Notes under the pieces: generated by a model
Told to the model about the DNA's origin: nothing
What the model saw: only the letters and a program-made list of their open reading frames with translations
Databases searched by the model: none
Origin: Skeletonema tropicum
Lineage: Eukaryota > Bacillariophyta > Thalassiosirophyceae > Thalassiosirales > Thalassiosiraceae
Assembly: GCA_037178625.1 (NCBI GenBank)
Contig: CM074130.1
Location: forward strand, 4,464,001-4,528,000
DNA: 64,000 bases
Direction: 5' to 3'
Program-made: the position numbers and the translations under genes
Shown here: positions 5,464 through 64,000 of the stretch, in pieces
How the letters are laid out: each line of letters starts with the position of its first letter
Position numbering within the stretch: position 1 is the stretch's first letter

Positions 5464-7640
5464 GTCCAATGTATAGAAGAGAAGATAGGCAGGCAGTTAT
5501 ACAGCTTTGATATGCATCTTTCAATGAGCTAGTACGAAGGAGAAAATTCAAGGCAAAGCATTCTCCAAATGGATATGTAGTTTTGTCGTCTGAAAAATAC
5601 AGGTAGAGGTCTGATGGACGGTGGGAATGACTCCTAAAAATGATGCAGCGAAAATATCATGCAAGACAGCCATTCTTACAGAAAAGGTGAAGAAGGTTGA
5701 TTTTCGGAGTATCGATGAACGATGTTAAGCATGCATAGTCTAAGGTCTGAGAGAAAAAGATGATGATGCTTTGTGGTGGAAAAGACAGTAAGAGGTGTAA
5801 ACCGAAGAGACAAGTTGGAGTATGTATCGATGAATTCTTGTCCCAGTGTCGATGAATGATGAATTCTTGTCCACATGGAAAGATTGTAGGTAAGCATACT
5901 CAATCACCTTCGTTGAGTGAAACGTAGTGATAGGAGAGGAAGAGATTGCTAGAGCTGCAAGATAGGCTTATCAATGATGGTGATGGATGATACATCATTT
6001 TGGAACAACTTGTCGCAAACAACCACATCACAAAGTCTACTGCTCCGATTACGCGAAAAAGAGTAAGAAGCTAGTAAGAGATGAGTCGTTTGCTCGCAAG
6101 AGAGAGTCGTCTGCTTGCATATGTTCAAACTCAGCGCTTATGGGACGAATGATGGGAGATAGCAAACCCAATGGATACCGAGATATTATGTTAAACATGA
6201 TTGGTGAAGTGAAATACTTCGTCCGGATAGAGACGAGACCAACTTTGACAATTGCATGAAACGAAAACGAGGTGGAGGACTGCCTCTCTTCTAGCCCTTT
6301 ATCGACGCTTGGATTGCAACTTAGCCGAGGCTACTATGATAGGCCCACCCCACTCGATGATTTTGAAGGCGAAATGAGTCGATTAAGATGGTTGAATTGG
6401 AAGAAGGCTGGTGCTAATTTCCAATCGCTTTAGTAGATACACCAAATAACTGATGAAGAAGTGGTTTGAGATGTCTTGGCACTTGGGATATCTTGACACG
6501 GCAAGGAAGAAGGTCGGTGACATTAAACGTCAAGAAAAGACTTGATGGAAGACTGCCCCTCTTGGAGGAGAGAAAAGCCTTCGCAGTCAACGTCAAGCGC
6601 ACTTTGGATTGCAACTTAGCTGAGGCTACTCTGATAAGCCCACTCCACGACGGCGAGGAAATGATAGTTTTGAAGACGCAAAGAGTCGAATAAGATGGTT
6701 GGATTGGCTCATCAATGATTGACGGGTGGATAGTAGATTGATATGGATGAAGTGAGGAACAAAATTCCAAACGCTGAAGTAGACACACCGTGCATATTGA
6801 TGAAGTGACTTGAGATGTCTTGACGCGACGATGAAGTAGGTTGGTGATATCAAACGTCAAAGGCGAGCTCTAACGTAGCCTCAAGGAGGCGGTTGAATAG
6901 ATTTGGTTGTCTGTTGTTGGTTTCCACTTCCCCTCGAGAGAGAAAAGTGTACTCATCCTCCAACGCCACGTAAAGGCCAACAGATATGATGGAGGTGGGC
7001 CATTGATCCCCGAAGGGAAAAGGTTAGACTTAAAGTTTAGCGGTACCCCCAAGGTACCTGCCTGGGAACTGTGCCCGGTCTTTGCCCGTGGCTCTGAACC
7101 GATGCCCTTTGCCTCCAGACGCCATCGTCTCTAGGAGCACCAGCCCGACGCTGGATTGAGAGCAAGGCGAAAGAACATGCCGATCAGCCTGGTTACTGAT
7201 ATGAGGCGAAAGAACATGCCGATCAGCCTGGTTACTGATATCATCATTCCTCCAGATAATCCACCGTCCGCACCCGCTCGTACTAAGTTGATGTTGAGAT
7301 AGAAAGGTTTATAAAGGAGAGAATTGGTGTTAGTGAAACAAGCATCGCAAAGTGAACCGAAGAATGAAGCACCATCATGCATACAAATAATCTTACCTCC
7401 CCCAATTCGAACCGCCGACACATCGCTGCTAAGAACAAGTAATTAGAGAGAAAATGGAAGAAGCAATGTTAGTGTGTGAGAACCCCCGACAGTGTTGATC
7501 AGGCACCACCGGAGGAGACGAACGAAAACAAAAATGATAGCACACAACTGCATCCCGCCCACTCTCTCACCGACTCAAACCCATTTGAACCCCAGAACCC
7601 GATCACCCAATCTCACCGCAAGCTCACAACATACGACCCG
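5464..7640. other. Left third of unit 1, no recognised gene
   Basis: Several frames of 60-148 residues (for example 5987-6259 plus, 6414-6860 minus, 6907-7134 plus, 7131-7421 minus) recur in the sister units. Near-identity of the units explains this without selection. A string beginning TTGGATTGCAACTTAGC and continuing GAGGCTACT occurs twice (near 6311 and 6604), showing an older internal duplication. None of the frames has a domain I recognise. Confidence 0.4.
7165..7241. repeat. Direct duplication of a 39-bp block (ISVTRLIGMFFRL on the minus strand)
   Basis: Two adjacent copies of a 39-bp block, each beginning AGGCGAAAGAACATGCCGAT. On the minus strand each copy would encode a 13-residue block containing VTRLIGMFFR. 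The diverged fourth unit has four copies (about 30922-31094) in an interrupted arrangement, so the block has expanded and contracted. Confidence 0.75.
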
Positions 7641-7803
7641 CCCTTCAGACCTAAAGAATACATAGAGATAGAAAACAAAAATAAAGAAGAGTTAATGAAC
7701 AATCTTAGTAGAATGCAAATAAAACTAGCGAACTCACCAAGGAACCTCAGCCCGAACCTTCAGACCACCCAACAATACCAATCACCCCAGCCTACAACAC
7801 GAT

Positions 7804-8840
7804 CTATGCACCCCACCTGACCCTACCCGCCTGGATGAGATAAACACAAAGACGAGGAAAGTTAAGGTTGTTGTTAGCGAAGAAGCAAAGTAGAAAAGCA
7901 AGCGCACATCGAACTGGAAACTCTAAACGTACCTTCCCCACTCCGATATCAACCCACTCGAAATCAATGAAGGATAATGAAGGACAATCAAACAAGGGAC
8001 AATCAAACAAGGGACAATCAAACAAGGGACAACCAAACAAGGGACAATCAAACAGACAATGGCGGCCCTCGGGGAATACAACCACGAAAGAGCAATACGC
8101 CTCAAAGCAACAATCAAACAGGATATGAATATGGTATACGGTCCCAAACCATCTAGATGAGATAGAAACAAAGAAGAGGAAAGTTAAGAGTTGTTGTTAG
8201 CGAAGAAGCAAAGTAGAAAAGCAAGCGCACATCAAATCGGAAACTCTAGACGTACCTTCCCTGCTCCGAAACCACCCACTCGAACTCAATGAAGGATAAT
8301 GAAGGACAATCAAACAAGGGACAATCAAACAAAGGACAATCAAACAAGGGACAATCAAACAAAGGACAATGGCGGCCCTCGGGGAATACAACCACGAACG
8401 AGCAATACGCCTCAAAGCAACAATCAAACAGGATATGAATATGGTATACGGTCCCAAACCACCTAGATGAGATAGAAACAAAGAAGAGGAAAGTTAAGAG
8501 TTGTTGTTAGCGAAGAAGCAAAGTAGAAAAGCAAGCGCACATCAAATCGGAAACTCTAGACGTACCTTCCCTGCTCCGAAACCACCCACTCGAACTCAAT
8601 GAAGGATAATGAAGGACAATCAAACAAAGGACAATCAAACAAGGGACAACCAAACAAAGGACAATCAAACAGACAATGGCGGCCCTCGGGGAATACAACC
8701 ACGAACGAGCAATACGCCTCAAAGCAACAATCAAACAGACAATGGCGGCCCTCGGGGAATACAACCACGAACGAGCAATACGCCTCAAAGCAACAATCAA
8801 ACAGGATATGAATAGAAGGTCCCGAACAAGCACACCACAT
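7804..8840 (-). CDS. Exon-repeat gene with Leu-Phe-Asp-Cys-Pro pentapeptide arrays (unit 1)
   Basis: No known family. Gene model on the minus strand: E1 8566-8840, E2 8256-8462, E3 7933-8152, E4 7804-7830. Introns are 103, 103 and 102 nt, with GTACGT donors, CTAAC branch-point-like strings and pyrimidine tracts ending ATCTAG or ATCCAG. The exons sum to 729 nt (242 residues plus stop). E1 starts at an ATG (MWCACSGPSIHILFDCC). E2 and E3 are diverged copies of E1: each reads HILFDCCFEAY, FVVVFPEGRHC, an LFDCP array and SFIEFEW or SFIDFEW. E1-E2 and E2-E3 joins have the same phase, so exons can be gained or lost without breaking the frame. A fourth splice pair (7651-7737) lies past the stop. The +1 frame (CLIVP/CLIVL repeats) is also open across the E1-E2-E3 joins, so the coding frame is not certain, and a spliced noncoding RNA is possible. 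The gene starts 170 bp after the membrane-protein gene on the same strand. Confidence 0.5.
7982..8671. repeat. 15-bp minisatellite arrays inside the exons (unit 1)
   Basis: Three arrays of a 15-bp unit (GGACAATCAAACAAG or A) occur at about 7982-8054, 8303-8369 and 8613-8671, one in each exon of the exon-repeat gene. On the minus strand one unit encodes LFDCP (or CLIVP in the alternative frame). Copy number differs between exons and between units, always in whole 15-bp steps among those I compared. E1 also contains a 66-bp direct duplication (about 8672-8803). Confidence 0.85.
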
Positions 8841-9009
8841 CCAAAAAAGAAGTCCAATCCCTCTTCAACTCAGCAAGGCACGCCTACTCAATCTTCAGCA
8901 CTGCAGAATACAGTGATGGCCCTGACGAATCAGCGACCACGTACCATAGCCAACAATCCGAAATATCAAACTTCTTTTCCACCTCTCCACCCTCACTAGA
9001 GAATACTCG

Positions 9010-10842
9010 CTACGGCTTGTATCTCTCTGGTTGCCGACGGACTCTTGCCCCCCTCCTAGGACGACTTGGGGTTACCCAGTAGCTACCCAACTGAGAACTG
9101 AGTTTCGCAACCTCGCTCCTCCTGCGACGGCGCTTCACACTAGGTGCAGGAACATCTTCCTCTTGCTCCCTCTCCTCCATAGCATCCGGCTGATCGAACG
9201 CTACTGGCTCCTCCGCTGCCAGCACTTCTACCGCTGCTTCAACAAGTCGATCTTCCTCTTCGATTCGAGGCATAGCATCAGCTTCTTCCTGTGCCCGTGC
9301 ACCAATAGGTTCAACAGCTGCTTCCTCGATGAGCTCCCTCTCCTCCACCGCATCCGGCTGATCGAACGCTACTGGCTCCTCCGCTGCCAGCACTTCTACC
9401 GCTGCTTCAACAAGTCGATTTTCCTCTTCGATACAAGGCGTAGCATCAGCTTCTTCCTGTGCCCGTGCACCAGGTTCAACAGCTGCTTCCTCGATCTGCT
9501 CCCTCTCCTCCACCGCATCCGGCTGATCAAACGCTACTGGCTCCTCCGCTGCCAGCACTTCTACCGGTGCTTCAACTCGATCTTCCTCTTCGATTCGAGG
9601 CATAGCATCAGCTTCTTCCTGTGCCCGTGCACCAATAGGTTCAACAGCTGCTTCCTGAATCACGATGTCAGCATTGTCAAATACTGCATCTTCCCATGTG
9701 CGTTGGACGATTGTCAACGATGGGTTAGGGAGAAATTCAGCCCGAAGCTTCATTTCAAGAAAGAGGATGTCGATTCCTTGCTCATAGAGTTTGCACTCTT
9801 TGAGCATCATTTCGTAGTCACTCCAGCTTCCAAGGCGTAGAGGGTGGTTCCTCCGAAAGCGTTTAAAGAGTGGAACGATGACCTTTAGAGCGCGCCGGGC
9901 TCTCCATTGCAAGTAGTAGTTTCCATCCACCATGGCACAAATCCTTCTGAAAGCGGCACGTCTACCAGCTTCCTTCATCGACACAATGTGTCGATTAACT
10001 ACTTCATCAGGCCAAGAGACCTTTAACACTAGCGGGAGACGGGCGATATAGTCGGAAGATTCCGATGTATCGGCGGCAGGAAGAGGAACGATGTTTGATG
10101 CGATAGCATCAGTGAGTACATCGAACCCGCGTAGGGCAAGCTGAAGGATCTCATACAATAGTATGGCGGAGGAGGATCCAACAACAACAACTACAATCAA
10201 TCCAAATATAGGAAGATTGGTAGGCATGACTTGGAGGAAGTCTTTTACCAACATCTGTAGAACTAGCGGAGCTATTATCAAACGGATGGAGTTGACAATC
10301 AGGCGGGTGACGAAACTGAAAGTCCGGAGAATAAGTCCCATGATGCGGCGACTCAAGAGGAAGACAGTCTTGATCATCAATGGGAATCTGAGGAAGGCAA
10401 GCAGATACATTGCGGCAACAACAAGTACTGCTATGAACAACTCTGGACCGAGAAGTTCAACGTTACAGATCTCTTCGATGACAAAAAGAGATGTAACCCA
10501 CGTTGCGATGACAAATAACTTGCCAAGATAGGTGCGGACGGACAGCACTCTATCGACTAAGATCAGGGTGGGGATCATAGTCCACATCGCGGTGACGATG
10601 GCAACATTGATCATGTGAAGAGCATGATCCAACGAGTACCACGAGTTGTTTGGATGGAAAACCCACACCAGAAGATCCAAACACATATCTGGTGTCACCA
10701 TTGCGAAGGCAACGGCGGCGAAGGCGACGACAAAGGCGACGATGGCGAACATGTTGATAACAGTTGTAAACAAACGATTGATAATCGATTTATGAGGTGA
10801 TCTCTCTAGCCGTTTCTGCGTGATGAAAGAGTGTGGGGTCAT
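9010..10842 (-). CDS. 610-residue multi-pass membrane protein with acidic repeats (unit 1)
   Basis: An intronless frame that I do not recognise. Residues 1-25 are basic. About seven hydrophobic segments follow (near 26-49, 78-96, 107-123, 134-152, 158-172, 181-199, 210-231). Residues 290-400 are a basic, Trp- and Arg-containing region (QWRARRALK, FKRFRRNHPLRL). About 398-565 is a tandem acidic domain: three copies of a roughly 55-residue repeat containing EEAAVEP, ARAQEEADAMPRIEEE, VEVLAAEEPVAFDQPDA. The last 40 residues are strongly basic (VKRRRRRSEVAKLSS, RRGARVRRQPERYKP). Start ATG gives MTPHSFITQK. Conservation of the frame in a diverged copy at 61248, with substitutions but no stops, argues that it is a real coding gene. 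The topology suggests a membrane anchor with a charged tail domain. A plus-strand 269-residue frame opposite the repeats is a shadow. Confidence 0.8.
   Translation of the reverse strand: MTPHSFITQKRLERSPHKSIINRLFTTVINMFAIVAFVVAFAAVAFAMVTPDMCLDLLVWVFHPNNSWYSLDHALHMINVAIVTAMWTMIPTLILVDRVLSVRTYLGKLFVIATWVTSLFVIEEICNVELLGPELFIAVLVVAAMYLLAFLRFPLMIKTVFLLSRRIMGLILRTFSFVTRLIVNSIRLIIAPLVLQMLVKDFLQVMPTNLPIFGLIVVVVVGSSSAILLYEILQLALRGFDVLTDAIASNIVPLPAADTSESSDYIARLPLVLKVSWPDEVVNRHIVSMKEAGRRAAFRRICAMVDGNYYLQWRARRALKVIVPLFKRFRRNHPLRLGSWSDYEMMLKECKLYEQGIDILFLEMKLRAEFLPNPSLTIVQRTWEDAVFDNADIVIQEAAVEPIGARAQEEADAMPRIEEEDRVEAPVEVLAAEEPVAFDQPDAVEEREQIEEAAVEPGARAQEEADATPCIEEENRLVEAAVEVLAAEEPVAFDQPDAVEERELIEEAAVEPIGARAQEEADAMPRIEEEDRLVEAAVEVLAAEEPVAFDQPDAMEEREQEEDVPAPSVKRRRRRSEVAKLSSQLGSYWVTPSRPRRGARVRRQPERYKP
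9160..9660. repeat. Three tandem coding repeats of about 165 bp (acidic domain)
   Basis: Near-identical blocks encode the acidic repeats of the 610-residue protein. The three tandem units keep three copies, while the diverged copies at 32463 and 61248 have two, so copy number is polymorphic within this window. Confidence 0.85.
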
Positions 10843-11751: not shown

Positions 11752-11952
11752 CTACTTGTAACGTATCTTCTTGATACAATCTATCTTGTGCCCAGTCTTC
11801 CACTGTTGCACTTGGCATTCCCTTCCACAGTACCACGCTCCTAAACATCTTGAACGACGCATAAATGAATGAAATCCTTCGTCCTTCGTGCAGTTTACAT
11901 CTTGTTGTCTATCAACGACATTGACTCGGCACGACTTGTCAACACATGGCAA
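11752..11952 (-). pseudogene. MYND-type zinc finger fragment (unit 1)
   Basis: The minus frame ends with CLGAWYCGRECQVQQWKTGH followed by KIDC, which matches the second half of a MYND finger (YC-x3-CQ-x2-x-W-x3-H-x3-C). The first Cys pair may be CVDKSC upstream, but its spacing is unusual. A TGA lies just upstream of the first codon, the first codon is TTG and no ATG precedes it, so the piece is an internal exon or a gene remnant. MYND fingers mediate protein-protein contacts and are often attached to ankyrin or SET domains. No such partner is visible nearby. Confidence 0.5.
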
Positions 11953-15120: not shown

Positions 15121-16173
15121 CTATGCACCCCACCTGACCCTACCCGCCTGGATGAGATAAACACAAAGACGAGGAAAGTTAAGAGTTGTTGTTAGCGAAG
15201 AAGCAAAGTAGAAAAGCAAGCGCACATCGAACTGGAAACTCTAAACGTACCTTCCCCACTCCGATATCAACCCACTCGAAATCAATGAAGGATAATGAAG
15301 GACAATCAAACAAGGGACAATCAAACAAGGGACAATCAAACAAGGGACAACCAAACAAGGGACAATCAAACAGACAATGGCGGCCCTCGGGGAATACAAC
15401 CACGAACGAGCAATACGCCTCAAAGCAACAATCAAACAGGATATGAATATGGTATACGGTCCCAAACCATCTAGATGAGATAGAAACAAAGAAGAGGAAA
15501 GTTAAGAGTTGTTGTTAGCGAAGAAGCAAAGTAGAAAAGCAAGCGCACATCAAATCGGAAACTCTAGACGTACCTTCCCTGCTCCGAAACCACCCACTCG
15601 AACTCAATGAAGGATAATGAAGGACAATCAAACAAGGGACAATCAAACAAAGGACAATCAAACAAAGGACAATCAAACAAGGGACAATCAAACAAAGGAC
15701 AATGGCGGCCCTCGGGGAATACAACCACGAACGAGCAATACGCCTCAAAGCAACAATCAAACAGGATATGAATATGGTATACGGTCCCAAACCACCTAGA
15801 TGAGATAGAAACAAAGAAGAGGAAAGTTGAGAGTTGTTGTTAGCGAAGAAGCAAAGTAGAAAAGCAAGCGCACATCAAATCGGAAACTCTAGACGTACCT
15901 TCCCTGCTCCGAAACCACCCACTCGAACTCAATGAAGGATAATGAAGGACAATCAAACAAAGGACAATCAAACAAGGGACAACCAAACAAAGGACAATCA
16001 AACAGACAATGGCGGCCCTCGGGGAATACAACCACGAACGAGCAATACGCCTCAAAGCAACAATCAAACAGACAATGGCGGCCCTCGGGGAATACAACCA
16101 CGAACGAGCAATACGCCTCAAAGCAACAATCAAACAGGATATGAATAGAAGGTCCCGAACAAGCACACCACAT
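15121..16173 (-). CDS. Exon-repeat gene, LFDCP arrays (unit 2)
   Basis: Same model as in unit 1: E1 15899-16173, E2 15574-15795, E3 15251-15470, E4 15121-15147, summing to 744 nt (247 residues). E2 is 15 bp longer than in unit 1, adding one pentapeptide and keeping frame. Splice donors (GTACGT) and acceptors (CTAG or CCAG) are unchanged. Confidence 0.5.
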
Positions 16174-22454: not shown

Positions 22455-23491
22455 CTATGCACCCCACCTGACCCTACCCGCCTGGATGAGATAAACACAA
22501 AGACGAGGAAAGTTAAGGTTGTTGTTAGCGAAGAAGCAAAGTAGAAAAGCAAGCGCACATCGAACTGGAAACTCTAAACGTACCTTCCCCACTCCGATAT
22601 CAACCCACTCGAAATCAATGAAGGATAATGAAGGACAATCAAACAAGGGACAATCAAACAAGGGACAACCAAACAAGGGTCAATCAAACAGACAATGGCG
22701 GCCCTCGGGGAATACAACCACGAACGAGCAATACGCCTCAAAGCAACAATCAAACAGGATATGAATATGGTATACGGTCCCAAACCATCTAGATGAGATA
22801 GAAACAAAGAAGAGGAAAGTTAAGAGTTGTTGTTAGCGAAGAAGCAAAGTAGAAAAGCAAGCGCACATCAAATCGGAAACTCTAGACGTACCTTCCCTGC
22901 TCCGAAACCACCCACTCGAACTCAATGAAGGATAATGAAGGACAATCAAACAAGGGACAATCAAACAAAGGACAATCAAACAAAGGACAATCAAACAAGG
23001 GACAATCAAACAAAGGACAATGGCGGCCCTCGGGGAATACAACCACGAACGAGCAATACGCCTCAAAGCAACAATCAAACAGGATATGAATATGGTATAC
23101 GGTCCCAAACCACCTAGATGAGATAGAAACAAAGAAGAGGAAAGTTGAGAGTTGTTGTTAGCGAAGAAGCAAAGTAGAAAAGCAAGCGCACATCAAATCG
23201 GAAACTCTAGACGTACCTTCCCTGCTCCGAAACCACCCACTCGAACTCAATGAAGGATAATGAAGGACAATCAAACAAAGGACAATCAAACAAGGGACAA
23301 CCAAACAAAGGACAATCAAACAGACAATGGCGGCCCTCGGGGAATACAACCACGAACGAGCAATACGCCTCAAAGCAACAATCAAACAGACAATGGCGGC
23401 CCTCGGGGAATACAACCACGAACGAGCAATACGCCTCAAAGCAACAATCAAACAGGATATGAATAGAAGGTCCCGAACAAGCACACCACAT
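22455..23491 (-). CDS. Exon-repeat gene, LFDCP arrays (unit 3)
   Basis: E1 23217-23491, E2 22892-23113, E3 22584-22788, E4 22455-22481, summing to 729 nt (242 residues). E3 is one 15-bp unit shorter and E2 one longer than in unit 1, so total length matches unit 1 by coincidence. All splice signals are kept. Confidence 0.5.
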
Positions 23492-31100: not shown

Positions 31101-31700
31101 CCTCCAGATCCAACTCCCCGATCTCTCCAACCCGCAATCCGCACCCCGCTCGTACTAAGTGGATGTTGAGATAGAAAAGATTATAGAAGAGAGAATTGGT
31201 GTTAATGAAACAAGCATCGTTAAGTGAACCGAAAAGTGAAGCACAAATCATGCAACAAGGAAACGTACCTCCCCCAATTCGAACCGACTCATCGCTGCTC
31301 GTACTAAGTGAGAGGAAAAGGAAGAAGCAATGTTATTGTGTGAGAACCCCCGACAGAGTTGATCAGGCACCACCGGAGGAGACGAACGAAAACAAAAGTC
31401 ATAGCACACAATCAACTACATCCCAACCATTCTCACCGACTCGAACCCATCCGAAACTCAGAACCCGATCATCCTATCCCACCGCCAGCTGACATGTACG
31501 ACCCGCCCTTCAGACCTGATGAATGTAGAGATAGAAAACAAAAAGAAGAAGGAGTTAATGAACAATCGTAGTAAAAAGCAAACAACACTAGCGAACCCAC
31601 CAAAGAACCTCGGCCCAAACTCCATCCTGTCAACTCCCGCAGCTAACAACACCCTCCATCCTTTCCACCTGGATGAGATAGAAACAAAAACGAGCAAAGT
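28164..31700. other. Diverged part of unit 4, no intact gene
   Basis: This stretch aligns piecewise with unit 1 (for example 28184-28530 with about 11135-11520, and 30660-30910 with 6900-7140). Short frames are disrupted relative to unit 1. Four copies of the 39-bp block type lie at about 30922-31094. No new gene is recognisable. Confidence 0.5.
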
Positions 31701-32101
31701 CGAGAGTTGTTGTTAGCAAAGAAGTAAAGTTAAAGTAGAAAAGCAAGCGCACATCGTTTTGGAAACTCGAAACTTACCTCCCCCTCTCCAAAACCAGCCC
31801 ACCGAAATGAAATGAAATGAAAGGTAATGAAGGATTCAAACAGGACAATCAAACAAAGGACAATCAAACAAGGACAATCAAACAAGGACAATCAAACAAA
31901 GGACAATCAAACAGACAATGGTGGCCCTCGGGGAATACAACCGCGAACAAGCAATACACCTCAAGCAGCAACAATCAAAAGATAGAAAACGGAACGAACA
32001 AGCCCAATCTCTAAGAAAGAAGAAGAAAGATAAAAGTTGTTGTTAGGGAAGAAGCAAAGTAGAAAAGCAAGCATAAAGTAAATAGGAAACTCGAAACGTA
32101 C

Positions 32102-32295
32102 CTCTCCGCTCCAAAACCAGCCCACTCGAACTCAATGAAGGATAATGAAGGACAATCAAACAAAGGACAATCAGACAAAGGACAATCAAACAGACAATGG
32201 CGGCCCTCGGGGGATACAACCACGAACGAGCAATACGCCTCAAAGCAAGAATCAAACAGGATATGAATATAAGGTCCCAAACAAGCACACCACAT
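32102..32295 (-). pseudogene. Exon-repeat gene, decayed copy (unit 4)
   Basis: E1 starts at ATG 32295 (MWCACLGPYIHILFD), keeps FVVVSPEGRHC and the SFIEFEW end, has only three LFDCP-like repeats, and retains the GTACGT donor after 32102. The next exon (about 31830-32010) has a 2-nt insertion that switches it from the LFDC to the CLIV frame and then stops, so the copy is probably non-functional in that frame. Splice signals survive despite divergence. Confidence 0.5.
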
Positions 32296-63079: not shown

Positions 63080-63590
63080 ATGTGGTGTGCTTGTTCGGGA
63101 CCTTCTATTCATATCCTGTTTGATTCTTGCTTTGAGGCGTATTTCTCGTTCGTGGTTGTATTCCCCGAGGGCCGCCATTGTCCTTTGTTTGATTGTCCTT
63201 TGTTTGATTGTCCTTTGTTTGATTGTCCTTTGTTTGATTGTCCTTTGTTTGATTGTCCTTCATTATCCTTCATTGAGTTCGAGTGGGCTGGTTTTGGAGC
63301 GGAGAGGTACGTTTCGAGTTTCCGATTTGATGTGCGCTTGCTTTTCTACTTTGCTTCTTCGCTAACAACAACTCTCAACTTTCCTCTTCTTTGTTTCTAT
63401 CTTATCCAGGTGGTTCGGGACCGTGTACCATATTCATATCCTGTTTGATTGTTGCTTTGAGGCGTATTGCTCGTTCGTGGTTGTATTCCCCGAGGGTTGC
63501 CATTGTCCTTTGTTTGATTGTCCCTTGTTTGTTTGTCCCTTCTTTGATTGTCCTTTGTTTGGTTGTCCTTTGTTTGATTGTCCAATTTGA
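63080..63590 (+). CDS. Exon-repeat gene, inverted copy (partial or shortened)
   Basis: E1 63080-63306 (MWCACSGPSIHILFDSCFEA, FVVVFPEGRHC, about five LFDCP units, SFIEFEW) uses a GTACGT donor. The 103-nt intron (63307-63409) ends TTATCCAG. E2 starts at 63410 and, in the same phase as in the array copies, reads RWFGTVYHIHILFDCCFEAY, FVVVFPEGCHC and a short pentapeptide array, then TGA at 63588. The conserved ATG, splice signals and phase in a diverged copy are the best support for the gene model. Further exon-like blocks with splice-like borders follow to the end of the window. Confidence 0.45.
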
Positions 63591-64000
63591 TTCCTTCATT
63601 ATCCTTCATTGAGTTTGAGTGGGTTGGTATTAGAGTGGGGTAGGTACGTCTCGAGTTTCCAATTCAATGTGCGCTTGATTTTCTACTTTGCTTCTTCACT
63701 AACAACAACTCTTAACTTTCCTCGTCTTTGTGTTTAATTGTCCTGTTTGAATCCTTCATTACCTTTCATTTCATTTCATTTTCGGTGGGCTGGTTTTGGA
63801 GAGGGGGAGGTAAGTTTCGAGTTTCCAAAACGATGTGCGCTTGCTTTTCTACTTTAACTTTACTTCTTTGCTAACAACAACTCTCGACTTTGCTCGTTTT
63901 TGTTTCTATCTCATCCAGGTGGAAAGGATGGAGGGTGTTGTTAGCTGCGGGAGTTGACAGGATGGAGTTTGGGCCGAGGTTCTTTGGTGGGTTCGCTAGT

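What the first reader, a model, noticed from the sequence alone, without database searches (positions are those of the whole stretch)
7804..8840. A spliced gene made of tandemly duplicated, phase-matched exons carrying a 15-bp minisatellite
Seen directly: on the minus strand each roughly 310-bp direct repeat is an exon plus an intron of 102-103 nt, with GTACGT donor, CTAAC string, pyrimidine tract and TAG or CAG acceptor. Joining them gives 729, 744 and 729 nt open frames in units 1-3, and an open E1-E2 join in the diverged inverted copy. E1 starts at a conserved ATG. I know of no described family with this LFDCP pentapeptide array and duplicated-exon design. It sits 170 bp downstream of a membrane-protein gene in every copy.
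Basis: partly seen in the sequence, partly recalled or inferred. Interest (0 to 1): 0.8.

Follow-up and report, generated by a model that had tools for sequence, protein, structure and literature searches.

The report
Repeated noncoding exons behind diatom gene
In a diatom, a repeated stretch of small exons and introns that looked like an unknown protein gene is most likely the noncoding, spliced tail of a multi-copy gene, and one intron of this family also sits in an unrelated enzyme gene whose near-identical twin lacks it.

Summary
The repeats, introns and coordinates are real; the protein is not supported. In 30 genomic copies I placed 73 array introns, all with GTACGT or GTAAGT donors and a CTAAC-like string; a homologue is a necessary intron of a peptidase M11 gene. 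But unit 3 has an in-frame TGA, and a second frame is open in all three window units. The proposed frame is open through the array in 3 of 30 copies, the next frame in 4 of 30; internal exon lengths mod 3 are 11/22/10. Exon changes show no codon signature; those of the 610-codon ORF upstream do. Three further introns follow the proposed stop in 27-29 of 30 copies. A hairpin in intron 5 and a 246-nt 3' block are the best-conserved parts, shared with another gene family. Best reading: noncoding spliced 3' region of the 610-codon gene with 1-5 tandem exon-intron units. Extra: the M11 intron is absent from a 96% identical paralogue and groups with one array intron, probably a recent intron gain. 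No RNA data were available.

The parts
9010..10842 (-).
   Evidence: ORF; 11 protein relatives at 43-83% identity; codon-position bias and 11 of 12 indels in multiples of three. Membrane nature not tested.
8841..9009 (-). about 170-nt noncoding spacer between stop codon and array
   Evidence: blast, 92-100% identity in 30 copies
8566..8840 (-). array exon E1 (275 nt), starts at the proposed ATG
8463..8565 (-). array intron 1 (103 nt, GTACGT...CTAAC...TAG)
8256..8462 (-). array exon E2 (207 nt)
8153..8255 (-). array intron 2 (103 nt)
7933..8152 (-). array exon E3 (220 nt)
7831..7932 (-). array intron 3 (102 nt, CAG acceptor)
7738..7830 (-). exon 4; contains the proposed stop codon at 7806-7804 and continues to the next donor
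   Evidence: sequence
7651..7737 (-). intron 4 (87 nt here), downstream of the proposed stop; found in 29 of 30 copies
   Evidence: coordinates from the sequence; copies
7429..7570 (-). intron 5 (142 nt here); found in 29 of 30 copies; holds the conserved hairpin
   Evidence: coordinates from the sequence; copies
7483..7515 (-). 33-nt hairpin block CCTCCGGTGG...GGGGG, shared with the dispersed small-protein family
   Evidence: pattern found in 28 of 30 copies and 13 of 19 dispersed loci
7283..7396 (-). intron 6 (114 nt); found in 27 of 30 copies, in one of them with a TAA acceptor
   Evidence: coordinates from the sequence; copies
7165..7241 (-). two copies of a 39-nt motif (CAGTAACCAGGCTGNNNGGCATGTTCTTTCGCC), 100 places in the genome at up to 2 mismatches, control 0
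6915..7160 (-). conserved 3' block with core CTTCGGGGATCAATGGCCCACC (47 genomic places at up to 2 mismatches; core found downstream in 28 of the 30 copies)
15121..16173 (-). array of unit 2 (exons 275, 222, 220, 27 nt)
22455..23491 (-). array of unit 3 (exons 275, 222, 205, 27 nt), in-frame TGA near 22681
31669..32295 (-). array of a diverged fourth copy
63080..63918 (+). array of the inverted diverged copy; E1-E2 join stops inside E2

Best explanation
The array is not a protein gene of its own. It is the noncoding, spliced 3' part of a multi-copy diatom gene whose coding part is the 610-codon ORF directly upstream. One exon-intron unit of about 310 bp was copied head to tail, presumably by unequal exchange, giving 1 to 5 array introns in different gene copies. 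The primary transcript would run from the ORF through the array, lose the array introns and three more introns, and end in a conserved block of about 250 nt that is probably the working part of the tail (RNA stability, localisation or 3'-end formation: inferred). The LFDCP frame is a by-product of the 15-bp minisatellite. Shown: copy number, splice signals, loss of frame, lack of coding constraint, downstream introns, conserved 3' blocks. Inferred: one transcript from ORF to 3' block, actual splicing, any function of the tail.
For: 30 copies with the spacer and array behind the ORF; introns 4, 5, 6 behind it in 29, 29 and 27 of 30 and the 3' core in 28 of 30. 73 array introns, donors GTACGT 57 and GTAAGT 16, a CTAAC, CTAAT or CTAGC string in 73 of 73, TAG 38 and CAG 35 (GTA and YAG were required, the rest not). 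In 26 distinct instances 1 of 12 core splice positions varies against 46 of 103 overall, P=0.006. A homologous intron must be spliced out of an M11 protease gene. Frame open in 3 of 30, next frame 4 of 30; 43 internal exons mod 3 = 11/22/10. Exon variable sites by codon position 19/30/28 against 39/20/55 in the ORF; 40 of 133 exon indels are multiples of three against 11 of 12 in the ORF. Mean distances (7-11 copies each): ORF 0.046, spacer 0.048, E1 0.067, introns 4-6 0.048-0.071, hairpin 0.021, 3' block 0.022. A second gene family with another ORF but a similar C-terminal motif has the hairpin and 3' block in the same order and no array.
Against: No RNA data. No test shows that ORF and array are on one transcript; a promoter inside the spacer cannot be excluded. 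Over all distinct instances exons vary less than array introns (3.3 against 6.5% of cells), which could mean some constraint on the exons, although E1 alone is as diverged as introns 4-6. The hairpin pattern is missing from 6 of 19 dispersed loci. Several introns after a stop codon would make an mRNA a decay target in organisms with junction-dependent decay (recalled; not tested in diatoms). The copies are related by duplication and conversion, so they are not independent.
Confidence: 0.62

Rival explanations
1. One reading: a separate spliced gene that codes a 242-residue protein of LFDCP pentapeptide repeats.
For: Units 1 and 2 are open from the ATG to the TAG in E4 when spliced; ATG in 28 of 30 copies.
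Against: In-frame TGA in unit 3 and a second fully open frame; open in 3 of 30 copies, no bias to 3n exons; no codon signature and many 1-2 nt indels; no Pfam match; the sole protein hit is a read-through ORF; introns continue past the stop.
Confidence: 0.05
2. A separate spliced long noncoding RNA gene with its own promoter in the spacer, ending in the same conserved 3' block.
For: Same splice-signal and noncoding evidence; the spacer is 92-100% conserved.
Against: The dispersed small-protein genes carry the same 3' block 452-834 nt behind the stop codons of their own ORFs, without an array (14 loci with such an ORF), which fits one transcript from ORF to 3' block better. No promoter test was made on the spacer.
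Confidence: 0.2
3. Neutral satellite: decaying duplicated intron and exon pieces behind the ORF, transcribed rarely or spliced inefficiently, with no role.
For: E1 is as diverged as introns 4-6; unit number varies 1-5 and two intron hits lack a usable donor or acceptor; several ORF copies are broken.
Against: Core splice positions are conserved and the hairpin and 3' block are better conserved than the ORF itself.
Confidence: 0.13

Closest known systems
Introner-like elements (PMC4457414 and PMC3879977, seen only as search listings with abstract starts)
   Same: Near-identical introns in many places, one of them a probable recent gain in a coding gene.
   Different: Of 57 places with the intron core pattern 56 lie in the array family and 1 outside; within the family they multiplied by tandem duplication together with an exon.
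Intron transposition or intron transfer (review PMC3443670, passages read; its Table 1 lists 14 and 3 unambiguous events, as of 2012)
   Same: The M11 intron has an identified relative elsewhere and is absent from a 96% identical paralogue.
   Different: The relative lies in a tandem noncoding array; route and direction are not shown, and about 35 nt of the 5' exon flank are diverged, which points to a conversion or repair patch.
Tandem exon duplication
   Same: Exon plus intron duplicated head to tail.
   Different: Exons show no coding constraint and no preference for 3n length.
mRNAs with introns in the 3' untranslated region (recalled)
   Same: Introns downstream of the stop codon.
   Different: Up to eight such introns in one copy (C1_11402: five array introns, introns 4-6 seen), in varying number between related gene copies; expression untested.

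Membership tests
Protein-coding gene of tandem 3n exons (reader) | Frame open in most copies | tested here: not met
   3 of 30 open through the array; frame +1 4 of 30; TGA in unit 3
Protein-coding gene of tandem 3n exons (reader) | Substitutions and indels respect codons | tested here: not met
   19/30/28 variable sites by codon position, 40 of 133 indels 3n; ORF control 39/20/55 and 11 of 12
Protein-coding gene of tandem 3n exons (reader) | Symmetric internal exons | tested here: not met
   lengths mod 3 0/1/2 = 11/22/10 of 43 internal exons
Spliceosomal introns | Conserved donor, branch and acceptor | tested here: met
   73 introns; P=0.006
Spliceosomal introns | Removed from RNA | not testable with these tools
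   no RNA data; indirect support from the M11 homologue, which must be removed to give a Peptidase_M11 protein
Introner-like element | Many copies inserted in unrelated genes | tested here: not met
   57 core-pattern places at up to 3 mismatches, 56 in the array family and 1 outside; the scored list likewise
Intron gained by transposition or transfer | Present in one paralogue, absent from close ones | tested here: met
   96.2 and 96.4% identical flanks without the intron. In one search, 11 of 27 matches run unbroken from residue 10 or earlier to 116 or later (the close paralogue and ten others, eight of them with one in-frame TAG), and one more reads through the site (L058); shorter matches not counted, since the intron gene itself gives one that runs into the intron
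Intron gained by transposition or transfer | Identified source intron | tested here: inconclusive
   groups with the C2_25534 last array intron at 100/99 support, but direction is not shown
Transposable element (dispersed small-protein genes with the same 3' block) | Target-site duplication or terminal repeats | tested here: not met
   5 loci examined: best direct matches 12 nt at one locus, away from the ends, and 8 nt or none at the others; no terminal inverted repeat over 9 nt; 3' ends differ
Known Rfam RNA for the 3' block | Match at the curated threshold | tested here: not met
   0 matches in the window; three sub-threshold rows with E 0.046-0.8
Structured RNA (3' block) | Stability beyond shuffles or covariation | tested here: inconclusive
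   z -0.79 and +0.39; 3 of 62 pairs with changes on both sides

The most novel reading that the evidence does not exclude
The array is a local amplifier of spliceosomal introns in noncoding exons, and its intron lineage recently supplied a new intron to an unrelated coding gene: the peptidase M11 gene at C16:224 kb gained it after splitting from its 96% identical paralogue at C16:167 kb. The 30 gene copies would at the same time be a natural dose series of exon junctions (about 4 to 8) behind one stop codon.
Probability: 0.45. Interest if true: 0.72.

Novelty: new variant of a known kind. Interest (0 to 1): 0.45.

Why it matters
If the tail is transcribed with the ORF, related gene copies differ in how many exon junctions follow the stop codon, a ready-made test of whether junction-dependent mRNA decay works in diatoms. 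The presence or absence of a related intron in two 96% identical protease genes is a case in which a probable recent intron gain comes with a candidate source, which bears on the open question of how spliceosomal introns arise. The conserved hairpin and 3' block, shared by two otherwise different gene families, may mark an undescribed RNA element.

Tried and rejected
Virus origin: no exact match of the 22-nt core and no relative of the 610-codon ORF in viral contigs. Known RNA: none at threshold in the window, only sub-threshold rows elsewhere. tRNA: none in the window (bacterial code setting). Strong fold of the 3' block: not supported. Transposable element: no convincing target duplications or terminal repeats at five small-protein loci. 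Introner family: one place found outside the array family (the lists are capped at 40 scored). Literature: the ten searches listed no paper on such an array by title or abstract start; of papers only passages of PMC3443670 were read. This does not show that nothing is in print.

Superseded steps: the first intron regex missed introns in some copies and was replaced. The first ORF comparison caught 6 of 11 representatives and was replaced. One search joined exons one base off at each junction and was replaced. Some segment borders (intron 5, intron 6, exon 5) are off by a few bases from those. Two intron hits were skipped for lack of donor or acceptor. In one search one row (L014) was taken at a wrong place; one search replaced it. 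In one search one row (L044) lacks part of the block.

Full report
Setting. The window is G000:C4:4464001-4528000 of a 78.4-Mb genome in 125 contigs. It is a diatom: the silicon-transporter family PF03842 gives 9 matches, 6 of them nearly full length (E down to 2.7e-245), and no control genome passes the cut-off.

Observation. The repeats are as described. Exons of unit 1 are 8840-8566, 8462-8256, 8152-7933 and 7830-7804; introns 103, 103 and 102 nt; spliced lengths in units 1-3 are 729, 744 and 729 nt. Unit 3, however, carries an in-frame TGA at codon 202, and in all three units the next frame is open through the array as well. Openness is therefore a property of the 15-bp repeat and says little.

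The family. A genome search with the array gave 38 matches. I fetched stretches around them; blast with the spacer found 30 copies there on C1, C2, C4, C5, C6 and C8. 37 of the 38 matches lie beside these 30 copies. Two partial ORF matches elsewhere (C2:4821 kb, C8:384.5 kb) have no array match. In one search I set introns in all 30 copies by blast to intron 1, requiring GTA and YAG: 73 introns, donors GTACGT 57 and GTAAGT 16, a CTAAC, CTAAT or CTAGC string in 73 of 73, acceptors TAG 38 and CAG 35; two hits were skipped. The number of array introns per copy is 1 (2 copies), 2 (19), 3 (5), 4 (2) and 5 (2). In 26 distinct intron instances 1 of 12 core splice positions varies against 46 of 103 positions overall (P=0.006).

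Coding test. The proposed frame is open through the array in 3 of 30 copies, one of them a copy with a single detected intron; the next frame in 4 of 30; the third in none. The 43 internal exon lengths mod 3 are 11/22/10 for 0/1/2. The tail GGGCTGGT occurs 36 times and the 1-nt shorter GGGTGGT 6 times, which are E1 and E2 of the three window units, so the phase match is private to these units. In 47 distinct exon hits the variable positions by codon position are 19/30/28 and 40 of 133 indels are multiples of three (hits, not independent events). The control, 843 nt of the 610-codon ORF in 11 representative copies, gives 39/20/55 and 11 of 12. The spliced 242-residue frame has no Pfam match and one protein hit, P0038 (E 2.4e-17, 30% of the query), which, read by eye, is an unspliced ORF that runs through an intron and changes frame in the minisatellite. 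Against this: over all instances exons vary less than array introns (3.3 against 6.5% of cells).

What follows the stop. Three more introns lie behind the proposed stop codon at 7804: intron 4 in 29 of 30 copies, intron 5 in 29 of 30, intron 6 in 27 of 30. Then come copies of a 39-nt motif (100 places in the genome, reversed-pattern control 0) and a block with the core CTTCGGGGATCAATGGCCCACC (47 places in the genome, control 0; behind 28 of the 30 copies). Mean distances among 7-11 representatives: ORF 0.046, spacer 0.048, E1 0.067, exon 4 0.033, introns 4-6 0.062, 0.048 and 0.071, exon 5 0.088, a 47-nt hairpin block in intron 5 0.021, 3' block 0.022. So E1 evolves like intron, and what is best held are the hairpin and the 3' block. 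The hairpin keeps its 12 pairs in 5 to 7 of 7 distinct 33-mers, but it is clearly more stable than shuffles in only one of three folds; its pattern was found in 28 of 30 copies and 13 of 19 dispersed loci. The 3' block is not unusually stable (z -0.79, +0.39) and shows changes on both sides in 3 of 62 pairs, so its structure is open. Rfam has no match at threshold in the window.

A second family. Outside the array family the 3' block lies behind genes for a basic protein of about 155 residues at dispersed places: 19 loci read, 14 with that ORF or a large part of it, 5 without; 25 matches in the genome; 26 relatives in the protein database. It shares with the 610-codon protein a C-terminal motif of the type REVA.L.S.LG.YW and, in blast, only the two noncoding blocks, in the same order. 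This supports the view that ORF and 3' block belong to one transcription unit and that the array was put between them in one family. Boundaries at five loci show no convincing target duplication or terminal repeat.

The intron elsewhere. The one unassigned match lies at C16:224562-224651. There the array-type intron (106 nt, GTAAGT...CTAAC...CAG) splits a gene; with it and a second intron removed the reading frame is continuous and matches Peptidase_M11 (E 1.1e-13), with it left in there is an immediate stop. A paralogue 57 kb away on C16 is 96.2 and 96.4% identical at DNA level on the two sides and lacks the intron. About 35 nt of exon just upstream are much more diverged, a possible conversion or repair patch. 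In a tree of 24 distinct array introns plus this one it groups with the last intron of copy C2_25534 at 100/99 support; identity without gaps is 93%, to the others 78-85%. One such place was found outside the family (whole genome at up to 3 mismatches, capped lists). In one search, 11 of 27 matches cover the site unbroken over a long stretch (the close paralogue and ten others), and L058 reads through it too. Gain in this gene is thus more likely than loss; direction and route are not shown. A 2012 review lists 14 unambiguous cases of intron transposition and 3 of intron transfer (PMC3443670, passages).

Judgement. The array is best read as a noncoding spliced 3' region whose exon-intron unit multiplies by tandem duplication; the evidence for one transcript with the ORF is positional only. 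The most interesting lead is the related intron in the M11 gene.

Noticed in passing
L055:948-1053 (G000:C16:224548-224653), L056: Array-type intron inside a peptidase M11 gene, absent from a 96% identical paralogue 57 kb away.
   Followed up: yes
L029-L047: Dispersed genes for a ~155-residue basic protein with conserved SILRK-like and R.V.FSA motifs (these resemble PP1-docking motifs, recalled), followed by the same 3' block, in 14 of 19 loci read.
   Followed up: partly
window 9010-10842 C-terminus: The 610-codon protein and the small basic protein share a C-terminal motif REVA.L.S.LG.YW..; no Pfam match for the proteins scanned.
   Followed up: partly
window 5464-28403: Tandem units of 7318-7333 bp, practically identical over much of their length, so very recent amplification or conversion.
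   Followed up: no
window 11752-11952, minus strand: An ORF piece that looks like a MYND zinc finger (YCGRECQVQQWKTGHKIDC), by recall only.
   Followed up: no
L044 and L045 (C15:2429900-2431700 and C15:2492100-2493900): 99.9% identical stretch of 1568 bp in opposite orientation about 60 kb apart, carrying the 3' block.
   Followed up: no
G000:C14, M11 places: Eight of the nine M11 matches on C14 read with one in-frame TAG in the scored stretch.
   Followed up: no
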